Shown one piece after another: positions 3,185 to 10,135 of a DNA stretch of 10,197 nt. Where the stretch lies: assembly GCA_043822065.1 (NCBI GenBank), contig JBDRCC010000005.1, positions 1-10,197 of the forward strand, read 5' to 3'. The notes under the pieces were generated by a model. That model was given only the letters and a program-made list of their open reading frames with translations. It was not told the origin of the DNA and searched no databases. Every line of letters begins with the position of its first letter. Within the stretch, counting starts at the first letter, position 1. Source of the DNA: JBDRCC01 sp043822065 [NCBI: archaeon]. Lineage in GTDB: Archaea > Undinarchaeota > CAZHTU01. A program made the translations under genes and the position numbers.

Positions 3185-3607
3185 TCAGGACGCCGCCGCT
3201 TTTTTTGGGTTTTTGCCAGTTTCCGCAAATTTGGCTGCCTGTACCATCTTAGTATAGAACCACGGCATAGACGGGTAAACCTGGGAGCAAAGGTTTTTGT
3301 TTAATATGTCTCCAAGCGCGGCGTCTACTGCCTTCACGACTTTGGCGTCTGGCGCTGTAAAGAAGATATACGGGAAAGTATAATGCACTATGCTTTGCCC
3401 CCCTGCCGTGCTTATTATCCTTGAAATCACCTTTGCGCGCATCCTCGCGGCGTTGGCGTCAGCAACCTTCCAGGGCGGGGCGTAGACTAGGCAGCGCCTT
3501 TTGCCTTTTCCAGTTTTGGCGACGGGAACCTCAAACTTGCTGCCGAATACTCCGCCAAACCTCTTTGTTTCCGTTTGCCTGTTCTTGTCGGTATCGCCTT
3601 TTTTCAT
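3185..3607 (-). CDS. Hypothetical protein, 140 residues, unrecognised
   Basis: I do not recognise a family. The protein begins with a charged, probably disordered tail (MKKGDTDKNRQTETKRFGG, 1-19), then a compact alpha/beta core of about 100 residues. The core includes a hydrophobic stretch IVHYTFPYIFFTA (73-85) and two cysteines (39 and 107), and the protein ends in an Ala/Lys-rich tail (129-140). There is no signal peptide or clear membrane span. The start is the ATG at 3607, preceded by a weak purine-rich stretch (AGGGTAGGAAA). Downstream it is separated by 45 bases from the HAD gene, which appears to have its own promoter. Its upstream side is unusual: about 260 bases of structured, mostly non-coding sequence lie between a good TATA box and this start. 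The basic N-terminus and small size would fit a nucleic-acid-associated protein, but that is a guess. Confidence 0.75.
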   Translation of the reverse strand: MKKGDTDKNRQTETKRFGGVFGSKFEVPVAKTGKGKRRCLVYAPPWKVADANAARMRAKVISRIISTAGGQSIVHYTFPYIFFTAPDAKVVKAVDAALGDILNKNLCSQVYPSMPWFYTKMVQAAKFAETGKNPKKAAAS

Positions 3608-4563: not shown

Positions 4564-4584
4564 GCTAACCATTTGTAGAATGCT

Positions 4585-7177: not shown

Positions 7178-7182
7178 TTTTT
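7178..7182 (+). terminator. Short U-tract just past mscS
   Basis: Five T follow the mscS stop codon by seven bases, enough to act as a weak archaeal terminator. A perfect palindrome AATGCGCATT (7170-7179) overlaps it, but has no loop and is unlikely to form a hairpin. Confidence 0.3.
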
Positions 7183-7639
7183 ACATCGCAAGCCAGGTAA
7201 CAATCTTCCAGCCAAACTGCGAGGTTATCAGCCAGCTCAGCCAGGTCGAGAAGGCGAAAAATTTCAGTATTGACATGGGGTTCGGCCATATCGGGTACAA
7301 AACTACATTTGATACTATGTTGTACGCCACGACGAGAAGAAGGACGTTCTTTACAATACTCGCTTCCGTGAACGTGAACAGCCCAGTAAGATAGCAGAAG
7401 ACGACCATGCATACGCCCATGATGATGAGCCCCATCAGGTTGAAGGGAAAGAGGAACCAGGAAACTACCATTATGGTAAGGGCAACCGCAATCCCTGCAA
7501 GCGGGCTGATGCCTATGCTTACCAGAATCCCCATCGGCAGCCAGAGCTCAAGCCCGCCCATGTCGACCCTGCGGACCCAGTAGCTGAGCGGGATGCCTGC
7601 CGCAATAACACAAAGGACAAACAGCGCCTGCTGGATCAT
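7181..7639 (-). CDS. Small integral membrane protein, 152 residues, unrecognised
   Basis: The protein is almost entirely hydrophobic, with about five membrane segments: roughly 1-21, 31-50, 52-88 (probably two), 93-115 and 124-150. The only obvious charged loop is near residues 22-30 (W-V-R-R-V-D). Very few charged residues lie inside the membrane, which argues against an ion transporter with a buried carboxylate site. I do not recognise the family; a small transporter subunit or scaffold is possible, but nothing shows it. The start is the ATG at 7639, whose first base is exactly 30 bases from the first T of a strong TATA box, so it is probably a leaderless single-gene transcript downstream of the polymerase genes. 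It converges on mscS with ten bases between stop codons. Confidence 0.75.
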   Translation of the reverse strand: MIQQALFVLCVIAAGIPLSYWVRRVDMGGLELWLPMGILVSIGISPLAGIAVALTIMVVSWFLFPFNLMGLIIMGVCMVVFCYLTGLFTFTEASIVKNVLLLVVAYNIVSNVVLYPIWPNPMSILKFFAFSTWLSWLITSQFGWKIVTWLAM

Positions 7640-7692: not shown

Positions 7693-8349
7693 CTACTTAA
7701 ACCACGCATCAAGCTTCTTCTGGTCGCCAAAATCCATGCCGTTGTACCCGAACGCCTCAAGAATCCTGAGCACCGGCGGGAGGACCTGGTTCTCAATATA
7801 GTACTGCGGGTCGTACCCGCCCTCATAAAGCTCAACGGGCACTGCCCTGTCGCCGATTTTTCCCTTGCTTGCGCCCTTGACAACGATGTACCCTATGACG
7901 CTTCCCTGCTCCACCTGCCTTCCAGCCGCCTTCGCCTTTCGCGCAGCGGCGACGTGCGGCCCCTCCGCTTTGTAGCTGTCTATCTCCTTTATCAGCTGGG
8001 TGTATATTACAAGGTCTTCAGTCTGGACGTCGCCCTTCTTCAGGCGGAGAATTACTTCCTGGACAATCTTTACGGCCTCGTCCTGCTTGCCTTCAAGCAC
8101 GGTCCGGATAACCCCCTGCTGGGTCTCCTTGGCAATCTTCGACCAGTCGCGCCGCCTGACCTCAAGCCCGCGCGTCTTGATGTTTCCGTCATAATCTATC
8201 AATGCATACCTCTTCTTTGTTATGAACACCCCGCGGCGGTAATAGCCCTCAAGCTCGAGCTCCATCACCCCAGGGAGGTTTTTGTTCACCTCCGCCAAGA
8301 ACTTCCCGACCTTGCCTACGAATTTCTCCGGCGGCTTATCCATTGGCAT
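7693..8349 (-). CDS. polB2: Family B DNA polymerase, small (C-terminal, thumb) part of a split enzyme
   Basis: The 218 residues (from the ATG at 8349) are the C-terminal palm and thumb of an archaeal family B polymerase. FLAEVNKNLPGVMELELEGY leads into RRGVFITKKRYALID, the KKRY motif at 45-48 that contacts primer-template DNA. TRGLEVRRRDW (59-69), GPHVAAARK (130-138), GSVIGYIVV (149-157) and YYIENQVLPPVLRILE (183-198) follow, all as in intact enzymes such as Pfu polymerase. QKKLDAWF (210-217) at the extreme C-terminus is a good PCNA-interacting (PIP) box. On its own it has no catalytic carboxylates, so it must join the large part. TTG 8355, GTG 8352 and ATG 8343 are alternative starts. No Shine-Dalgarno is visible, and the gene begins inside the large-part gene, so reinitiation after that gene's TAA is likely. 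Confidence 0.92.
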   Translation of the reverse strand: MPMDKPPEKFVGKVGKFLAEVNKNLPGVMELELEGYYRRGVFITKKRYALIDYDGNIKTRGLEVRRRDWSKIAKETQQGVIRTVLEGKQDEAVKIVQEVILRLKKGDVQTEDLVIYTQLIKEIDSYKAEGPHVAAARKAKAAGRQVEQGSVIGYIVVKGASKGKIGDRAVPVELYEGGYDPQYYIENQVLPPVLRILEAFGYNGMDFGDQKKLDAWFK

Positions 8350-10135
8350 CACCAAAGAACAGGGAATCCGTGTCCCCGTATATGACTGTGAATCCCGCCT
8401 TTTCCGCCCTGTCCATTATGTCCTGTATGAAATGCCTTCCAAACGCAGTCACGCTCTCTGCGCATTGGCGCGAATGCCAGCGCGAGCCTGCGTAGCCCAA
8501 GTAGCCGTAGGCAGAATTCAGGAACAGCTTGAGCGCGTACTGCTCGGCGTCAAGGCGCTTGTACTCCTTGCTGCCCTTCTGCGCCTCCTTCATTCTTTTC
8601 TTTATCGCGCCACGGTTATCGAGCAGCTCCTTCAGCGCTGAAGGCAGGAGCCCAGTCCGCTTCTTGCAGAAGTAATGCGGCATCCCCGGTACAGCCATCC
8701 GTTCCTTCGGCGAACAGCAGTCGCAGTTCAGCATATCCGGTCCGATGTTGTGGCTTATTATCACCGAGGGGTACAGGCTCCTGAAGTCGAGGACCGCAAG
8801 GTGCTCGTGCATGCCCTTGATTGGGTCCCTCACGTAAGCCCCTTCGATTGCGCCCTCTGCAATCCTGCTTGACCGCTCGTCATAATGCGGGCGCGACGGA
8901 GCGACTTCCCCCCGCTCATGCGCCTTGTTTAGGAGGAGGCTCTCGACCAGCTGGCCGGAGGTCATCCTGCTGACGTCAAAAATCGGGCCCTTCACGAGCC
9001 TGGAGAACTCAAGCTGGAGGGGAAGGAACTCGAGCGCCAGCTTAGCCGTCGCGTCGGCGTCCTCGCGGGTGTACTGCATTATCCTGTTGAGGTCCTTGCC
9101 CTCGTCCCAGACCTTCCACATGTCGCCGTCGAACGGCTTTTTGTCCGTCCCGAAAATGTGGTTTGCCACGTGCTCAAGCGTGTACCTGGGGAGGCTCAGG
9201 CTGCCCCTCAAAATATTGAACACTACGTGGTAAAGGTCGGCATGAAGCCTTCCAGGAATTTTCGCCGCCTCAAACCGCCCGCGCTTTGAGAAACTGACGC
9301 CCATCTTCTCACGCCCTAAGATAAGCTCGACCTTCAGGGCGTCTGCCCTCTTCTCAATATACGGGAAGTCAAACTGGTCGCCGTTGTAGGTCACGACAAC
9401 GTCCGGGTCTCTCTCCTGGTAGGTGCTGACGATTTCCTCTATCAGCTCACGCTCATCCTTCACAACCGTTATCCACGGCTTTTTCTCCTTCGGCTCTTTT
9501 GAAGTTATGACCCGCTCCCAGCCGGAATTGTCAGCAAAGCTTGCAGCGATTATCGGGTCAATCTCAGGCCGCGGCGCGCCTTCGGGGTTGTAGACCTCAA
9601 GGTCGAAGCTCATTATCCTCAGGGAATCAATGTCTGTCAGCTCGGCGGAGCGCTTTATGTCCTCAACCGCGTATGCGTTCTCAAGCCCCTCTGCATTCTT
9701 TGCCTCCTGCGCCTTGACGTCCAAGAGCACGGACTGCTCGAGCCCGAGGTCAATCATGTACCTCCTGACGAATGGGATGTCGTCCTCCCGCGACTCGTAT
9801 CCGAGGTTGCGCACGAGCTCACGATAGATAGGCACGTCGCCCGGGCGCTTGAAATACACTTTCAGGACTTCCCTGGGCGTCCCGCTAACATTCCTTTGGA
9901 CATGCTCAAATCTTACTGCCTTTACTTCCTGCCCGCTCTCCGTCGCCCCTGACTTGCCCTCCAGCTCCTTTTCGGCGTCCGCTGGCTTTGGCGCGAGCAC
10001 ATAAATATACGGCTGGTGCCTGGAATCAAGGAGGACTGCCGGCTTCCATTTGCCATCAGAAAGCGCCTTTCCGAAAAGCCTGACTGTTGTGAACTCTTCA
10101 GAACGGTAGTCTATGTCCAGCAAAAGAAATTTCAT
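8336..10135 (-). CDS. polB1: Family B DNA polymerase, large part (exonuclease and catalytic palm) of a split enzyme
   Basis: The 599 residues hold the N-terminal domain, the 3'-5' proofreading exonuclease and most of the polymerase. Exo I is SFDLEVYN (D178, E180), Exo II is YNGDQFD (N251, D256) and Exo III is YTRED (Y355, D359). Motif A is DFRSLYPS (450-457), motif B is K536-LFLN-SAYG (to 544), and motif C is YGDTDS (586-591) with D588 and D590. The protein ends eight residues later with LFFGDANG and a TAA. Intact archaeal family B enzymes continue about 190 residues more, and those are encoded by the next gene. All catalytic and proofreading residues are present. The ATG at 10135 shares its A with the TAA of the upstream gene. 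No intein sequence is seen at the break, unlike the Nanoarchaeum equitans case; a Methanothermobacter-type split is the closest known parallel. Confidence 0.94.
   Translation of the reverse strand: MKFLLLDIDYRSEEFTTVRLFGKALSDGKWKPAVLLDSRHQPYIYVLAPKPADAEKELEGKSGATESGQEVKAVRFEHVQRNVSGTPREVLKVYFKRPGDVPIYRELVRNLGYESREDDIPFVRRYMIDLGLEQSVLLDVKAQEAKNAEGLENAYAVEDIKRSAELTDIDSLRIMSFDLEVYNPEGAPRPEIDPIIAASFADNSGWERVITSKEPKEKKPWITVVKDERELIEEIVSTYQERDPDVVVTYNGDQFDFPYIEKRADALKVELILGREKMGVSFSKRGRFEAAKIPGRLHADLYHVVFNILRGSLSLPRYTLEHVANHIFGTDKKPFDGDMWKVWDEGKDLNRIMQYTREDADATAKLALEFLPLQLEFSRLVKGPIFDVSRMTSGQLVESLLLNKAHERGEVAPSRPHYDERSSRIAEGAIEGAYVRDPIKGMHEHLAVLDFRSLYPSVIISHNIGPDMLNCDCCSPKERMAVPGMPHYFCKKRTGLLPSALKELLDNRGAIKKRMKEAQKGSKEYKRLDAEQYALKLFLNSAYGYLGYAGSRWHSRQCAESVTAFGRHFIQDIMDRAEKAGFTVIYGDTDSLFFGDANG

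What the first reader, a model, noticed from the sequence alone, without database searches (positions are those of the whole stretch)
7693..10135. Family B DNA polymerase split immediately after catalytic motif C, with overlapping adjacent genes
The catalytic core ends eight residues after YGDTDS, and the remaining palm and thumb are encoded by the next gene in another frame, overlapping by 14-20 bases. Established parallels are the two-gene, intein-free PolB of Methanothermobacter and the split-intein PolB of Nanoarchaeum equitans, whose halves lie apart on the chromosome. Here the halves are adjacent, which could represent an early state of the fission, with coupled translation fixing their ratio. 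All exonuclease and polymerase residues are present, and both parts align without loss to intact enzymes, so the pair is probably functional.
Basis: partly seen in the sequence, partly recalled or inferred. Interest (0 to 1): 0.7.

Follow-up and report, generated by a model that had tools for sequence, protein, structure and literature searches.

The report
Archaeal DNA polymerase gene, one-base frame break
An otherwise ordinary archaeal family B DNA polymerase gene is cut in two by a one-base shift of reading frame just after its catalytic motif; it is more likely a sequencing error or a very young mutation than an evolved two-part enzyme, though the break lies at a spot where a split could work.

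Summary
A PolB N-part (8336-10135, minus, 599 aa, ending eight residues after YGDTDS) and a C-part (7693-8355, minus, up to 220 aa, other frame) together cover one archaeal family B polymerase with nothing lost. 'Early fission with coupled translation' is not established. The DNA is a net one base from a continuous gene: in the overlap the C frame still spells F-L-V-M-P, the family pattern (99 relatives' tails); the N frame's tail fits poorly. Of 217 genomes with an ortholog, 211 read through this junction in one frame, 6 do not cover it, none is broken there; at least 4 are broken elsewhere in the gene. A start codon close before the new stop arises in 40% of simulated insertions. For a real split: the break lies in a loop after the motif C hairpin, about ten residues past the site where N. 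equitans PolB is split (PMC549080), and GGTGAT stands 4 nt before one start (2.0% of simulations). No close relative, reads or genome were available. Lone frame break 0.65; functional young split 0.25.

The parts
8336..10135 (-). PolB N-part, 599 aa: N-terminal domain, 3'-5' exonuclease, palm/fingers with motifs A, B, C
   Evidence: AlphaFold2 mean pLDDT 90.1
7693..8355 (-). PolB C-part, up to 220 aa: rest of palm with KKRY, and thumb
   Evidence: AlphaFold2 mean pLDDT 80.6; Foldseek best hits in the PDB are archaeal PolB structures, best E 5.9e-23
8363..8380 (-). motif C, YGDTDS
8353..8359 (-). place where the frame changes: conserved F codon (8359-8357) in the N frame, conserved L codon (8355-8353) in the C frame, one base apart
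8344..8355 (-). overlap codons that in the C frame spell L-V-M-P, matching the relatives' pattern, and in the N frame fit it poorly
8348..8353 (-). Shine-Dalgarno-like GGTGAT, 4 nt before ATG 8343
   Evidence: chance level
8341..8343 (-). candidate start codon ATG of the C-part, overlapping the N stop by 8 bases
8336..8338 (-). stop codon TAA of the N-part

Best explanation
It is one ordinary archaeal family B DNA polymerase gene (nearest in sequence to the PolB of Thermococci, Theionarchaea and DPANN) whose reading frame is broken by a net one-base indel at the codons just after motif C. The break is either an error in the sequenced or assembled contig or a very recent mutation in the sampled strain. 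If an error, the cell makes a normal single-chain polymerase. If a mutation, the cell makes a truncated chain that holds the catalytic residues but lacks the rest of the palm and the thumb, plus whatever C-part reinitiation gives. Shown: one net base, no residue lost, relatives intact. Inferred: that it is an error or is young.
For: A profile of 36 unbroken relatives (6 of them other archaeal PolB types) is covered at positions 14-604 by the N frame (633.9 bits) and 609-826 by the C frame (255.5 bits) of 828; the four skipped positions lie in the overlap. In 99 distinct relatives' tails after TD[SGA] (picked by a motif that allows F, Y, A or M at position 2) position 3 is L in 53, A in 29, I in 14 and F in 1, position 5 is I/L/M/V in 86, position 6 is P in 68. 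The C frame gives F-L-V-M-P (compare FLVLP in L012, L044, L064 and FLIMP in L065, L131), the N frame F-F-G-D-A. So the joined sequence is still intact. The junction is open in one frame in 103 of 104 genomes, 74 of 75, 25 of 29 and 9 of 9; the other 6 do not cover it; 0 are broken there. At least 4 of these 217 have a frame change or a stop elsewhere in polB (G162, G238, G056; G017), so lone breaks are a background event in such drafts. A start codon within 20 nt upstream of the new stop arises in 39.9% of 5,953 simulated one-base duplications in eight window ORFs.
Against: The break falls in a loop and near a known split/intein site rather than inside a helix or strand. A GGTGAT 4 nt before an ATG that overlaps the stop is uncommon by chance: an SD-like start within 20 nt of the stop comes up in 2.0% of simulations (4.6% in the N-part, 9.4% in the C-part). 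The T run at the place is only three long, not a typical error site. The six neighbours with Pfam matches (of eight checked) are covered nearly end to end, one of them cut by the window edge, so the contig is not generally error-rich. No read was examined, and no relative above about 57% identity over most of the C-part, or about 47% over most of the N-part, was found.
Confidence: 0.65

Rival explanations
1. A true, young gene fission: the two chains are made from one transcript, the second by reinitiation at ATG 8343 helped by the GGTGAT, and they assemble into one polymerase, as the split enzyme of Methanothermobacter is reported to do (recalled).
For: Break in a coil between strand 592-595 of the N-part and helix 10-26 of the C-part. 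All catalytic residues kept. Site about ten residues past YGD|TDS, where N. equitans is split. SD-like GGTGAT with 4 nt spacing. Split PolB3 known in Methanobacteriales.
Against: 0 of 217 ortholog-bearing genomes share it. The overlap still spells the joined protein's conserved residues, so no drift is visible. A start near the stop is common by chance.
Confidence: 0.25
2. Programmed +1 ribosomal frameshifting joins the frames, so one full-length PolB is made from the broken gene.
For: The frames differ by +1, the conserved residues run across the junction, and the C frame is open back to 8415, so a shift anywhere in about 77 bases would read on.
Against: No stop or rare codon and no classic slippery site at the shift codons (judged by eye; motif knowledge recalled). 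No relative that covers the junction needs such a shift. The SD-like element is downstream of the shift point, not upstream as in prfB (recalled).
Confidence: 0.05
3. Remnant of an intein at the pol-c site: imprecise loss of an intein left the gene split, as proposed for Methanobacteriales (PMC4104785, passages).
For: At least 9 relatives carry a large insertion at that site: G019, G021, G041, G046, G052, G059, G062 and G001, G108 have N matches ending at residue 589 in open frames of 1,213-1,308 aa.
Against: In the window YGDTDSLF is uninterrupted, the break is about ten residues further on, and no intein domain was matched in either part.
Confidence: 0.03

Closest known systems
Split PolB3 of Methanobacteriales (Methanothermobacter thermautotrophicus; Kelman et al. 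1999, not held, recalled; PMC4104785 and PMC4390880, passages)
   Same: Archaeal family B polymerase in two genes; recalled part sizes (about 586 and 223 aa) are near 599 and 220.
   Different: There the split is reported for the order and an enzyme was isolated (title of Kelman 1999 seen in reference lists). Here it is one sequence, a net one base from a joined gene. The break site of the Methanobacteriales genes could not be compared, because no such sequence was at hand.
Nanoarchaeum equitans PolB (NEQ068/NEQ528; PMC549080, PMC3655853, PMC4104785, passages)
   Same: PolB of a small archaeon broken beside motif C.
   Different: There the halves are non-adjacent and carry intein parts at the pol-c site (YGD|TDS), by which they could be trans-spliced. 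Here they are adjacent and overlapping, without an intein, about ten residues downstream.
Intact PolB of Diapherotrites and related DPANN, Theionarchaea and Thermococci (loci L001-L021, L037-L093, L099-L162; names only for those)
   Same: Same domains, motifs and junction pattern; about 32-47% identity in the N-part, 40-57% in the C-part.
   Different: One continuous reading frame across the junction wherever the junction is covered.

Membership tests
Archaeal family B DNA polymerase | Exonuclease and polymerase domains with Exo I-III and motifs A, B, C | tested here: met
   Pfam PF03104 and PF00136; PDB matches; invariant columns
Archaeal family B DNA polymerase | PolB3 subgroup (naming of PMC4104785) | tested here: inconclusive
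   Closest in identity to Thermococci and DPANN PolB; no labelled subgroup tree was made, and no NCBIfam cut-off was reached
Archaeal family B DNA polymerase | Single continuous chain, as in the relatives | tested here: not met
   As sequenced the frame is broken at 8353-8359; 211 of 217 ortholog-bearing genomes are continuous here, 6 do not cover it
Functional split PolB (Methanobacteriales kind) | Split conserved across related genomes | tested here: not met
   0 of 217 ortholog-bearing genomes; but none is a close relative, and Methanobacteriales, Micrarchaeota or Altiarchaeota could not be picked for a search
Functional split PolB (Methanobacteriales kind) | Two proteins that form one active enzyme | not testable with these tools
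   Needs proteomics and biochemistry
Split-intein PolB (N. equitans kind) | Intein halves at the break, exteins joined by trans-splicing | tested here: not met
   Only eight residues follow YGDTDS; no intein domain matched in either part
Sequencing or assembly error | Reads disagree with the contig at the junction | not testable with these tools
   No reads; no whole genome held for the window

The most novel reading that the evidence does not exclude
A polymerase caught in the act of fission: adjacent halves overlapping by eight bases, the second start served by an internal Shine-Dalgarno that also encodes the old joining residues, so that coupled reinitiation yields a two-chain PolB close to the position where N. 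equitans splits its own, without an intein as go-between.
Probability: 0.22. Interest if true: 0.6.

Novelty: not a real feature. Interest (0 to 1): 0.25.

Why it matters
If real, it would show that a replicative-type polymerase can be cut beside its catalytic aspartates by one indel and survive, giving a start point for splits now attributed to inteins (PMC4104785, passages). As it stands it is mainly a caution: one-base breaks in draft archaeal contigs look like gene fission, and because a start codon close before the new stop arises in about 40% of simulated insertions, overlap alone is no sign of translational coupling.

Tried and rejected
Close relatives: the window protein alone found none in genome contigs or viral contigs; an alignment query gave 36 loci in genome contigs, of which L031-L036 are weak bacterial matches, and 1 weak locus in viral contigs; a 26-base pattern just upstream of the frame change found nothing in viral contigs. 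Lineage: a PolB tree placed the window on no well-supported branch (support 0.42); the 140-aa neighbour matched 0 of 87 genomes; the glycosyltransferase neighbour matched 28 of 34 and 82 of 87 genomes, but only at 27-38% identity. The organism is therefore unplaced (DPANN or a neighbouring archaeal lineage, by similarity only).

Rejected: intein remnant (clean pol-c site); established fission (no sharing, no drift seen). Papers: searches brought up no report of an adjacent, overlapping split PolB of this kind in the listings or passages I saw; this is no proof of absence. Searches returned no paper at all. Kelman 1999 is not held.

Limits: of 156 loci with a match, 132 hold the N end and the C part in one frame, 10 are open for 111 or more residues upstream of the C match without an N match that reaches its end, 1 is cut at the locus end (L139) and 13 have no C match at the cut-off used (fragments, or other polymerases such as L023-L027 and L030); L153 was left out, and some loci overlap. 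The 14 stretches were picked because their frames were short or cut, so 'at least 4' breaks elsewhere is a lower bound. In one search, 108 of 115 genomes match; I counted as orthologs the 104 with E of 1e-40 or better and dropped G129, G130, G131 and G135. In one search (10 of 10 match) I dropped G123 for the same reason. In 'open' means an open frame long enough to reach past the C-part (284 aa or more) around the C match. In one search neighbouring positions share stops, so the 5,953 cases are not independent. The Shine-Dalgarno observation is post hoc. The PF00136 search of 13 genomes served only to get handles.

Full report
What is there. The minus strand of the window carries, head to tail, a 599-aa ORF (8336-10135) and a 220-aa ORF (7693-8355) in another frame. 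Pfam assigns exonuclease and DNA_pol_B to the first (profile positions 12-234 of 453 for DNA_pol_B) and the remaining DNA_pol_B (247-452) to the second. Against PDB chains the first matches archaeal PolB from the N-terminus to Pfu residue 547, the second from residue 556 of the D. Tok enzyme on. Neither part alone reaches a curated NCBIfam cut-off. The catalytic residues of exonuclease and polymerase are all present (motif names recalled).

How the frames meet. Reading down the minus strand, YGDTDS (8380-8363) is followed in the N frame by L-F-F-G-D-A-N-G-stop. The C frame, one base further on, is open from 8415 and spells L-V-M-P-M-D-K from 8355. A profile built from 36 unbroken relatives, 6 of them other archaeal PolB types, is matched at positions 14-604 by the N frame and 609-826 by the C frame of 828; the skipped four positions lie in the overlap. 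In 99 distinct relatives' tails the residues after TD[SGA] run x-F-[L/A/I]-x-[I/L/M/V]-P: F 81, L 53 (A 29, I 14), I/L/M/V 86 and P 68 of 99 at positions 2, 3, 5 and 6. The joined reading F-L-V-M-P fits this pattern, while the N frame's F-F-G-D-A does not (F at position 3 in 1 of 99). Nothing is missing, and the conserved residues just past the break are still there in the other frame. This is what a single-base indel in an intact gene looks like when it is an error or has not had time to drift.

Relatives. No close relative was found. Best identities over most of the N-part are about 42% against genomes of the phyla of G001 and G002 and about 47% against genomes of the phylum of Theionarchaea; over most of the C-part they are up to 56-57%. 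Of genomes with an ortholog, the junction is read in one open frame in 103 of 104 (phylum of G005; the other, G141, matches from base 1 of its contig), 74 of 75 (phylum of G002; G070 is cut by a contig end), 25 of 29 (phylum of G001; G100, G105, G111 and G116 have no C match in the stretch fetched) and 9 of 9 (phylum of G123): 211 of 217, 0 broken there. Frame changes or stops elsewhere in the gene occur in at least 4 of these genomes (G162, G238, G056; G017). Lone breaks are thus background in such drafts, and this one is not shared. No locus known to lie in Methanobacteriales, where split PolB3 genes are reported, was at hand.

Signs in favour of a real split. (1) In AlphaFold2 models the N-part ends with strand 592-595 and a short coil, and the C-part, read from TTG 8355, begins with nine coil residues of low confidence (block mean pLDDT 59) and helix 10-26: the break is in a loop right after the motif C hairpin, a place where a chain break could be tolerated (inference). 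(2) It lies about ten residues past YGD|TDS, the pol-c intein site at which N. equitans PolB is split (passages of PMC549080) and where at least 9 relatives carry a large insertion. (3) GGTGAT, a good match to an archaeal Shine-Dalgarno (recalled), stands 4 nt before ATG 8343. GGTGAT lies 3-13 nt before only 3 of 880 start-like triplets on both strands of the window, this place included, and simulated insertions give an SD-like start within 20 nt of the stop in 2.0% of 5,953 cases (4.6% in the N-part, 9.4% in the C-part). A start codon as such within 20 nt of the stop arises in 39.9%, so the overlap alone means little. These signs were noticed after the fact, and I discount them accordingly.

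Weighing. A lone frame break, error or very recent mutation, explains everything except the mildly unusual start signal and place. A functional young fission explains those but needs an event not seen in any of 217 ortholog-bearing genomes. [quoted passage not shown] NRC-1. Programmed frameshifting lacks a recognisable site. I put 0.65 on the lone break, 0.25 on a functional split, and small values on the rest.

Compared with what is known. As a protein it is an archaeal PolB, nearest to those of Thermococci, Theionarchaea and DPANN; its place in the PolB3 subgroup was not tested with a labelled tree. As a split it would resemble Methanobacteriales PolB3 (two genes; PMC4104785 and PMC4390880, passages) more than N. 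equitans (intein parts, non-adjacent). Of the features of a functional split, sharing among relatives was tested and not met, and activity cannot be tested here.

Noticed in passing
L038, L048, L052-L054, L070 and genomes G046, G059, G062: Large insertions (roughly 400-500 aa, presumably pol-c inteins) at YGD|TDS of PolB in several genomes; not examined for intein motifs.
   Followed up: partly
window 3185-3607 minus: 140-aa ORF with no Pfam or NCBIfam match and no relative in 87 genomes of the phylum of G002.
   Followed up: partly
window 7181-7639 minus, between polB and a MscS-like gene: 152-aa membrane-like ORF without a Pfam or NCBIfam match directly downstream of polB.
   Followed up: no
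L140 (G162), L150 (G056), L144 (G238), L149 (G017): Other archaeal polB genes with a frame change or an in-frame stop, at other positions.
   Followed up: partly
window starts at 4572, 6067, 7639: T/A-rich TATA-like stretches about 25 bases before the start codons suggest leaderless transcripts; Shine-Dalgarno-like sequences are rare at the window's gene starts (by eye).
   Followed up: no
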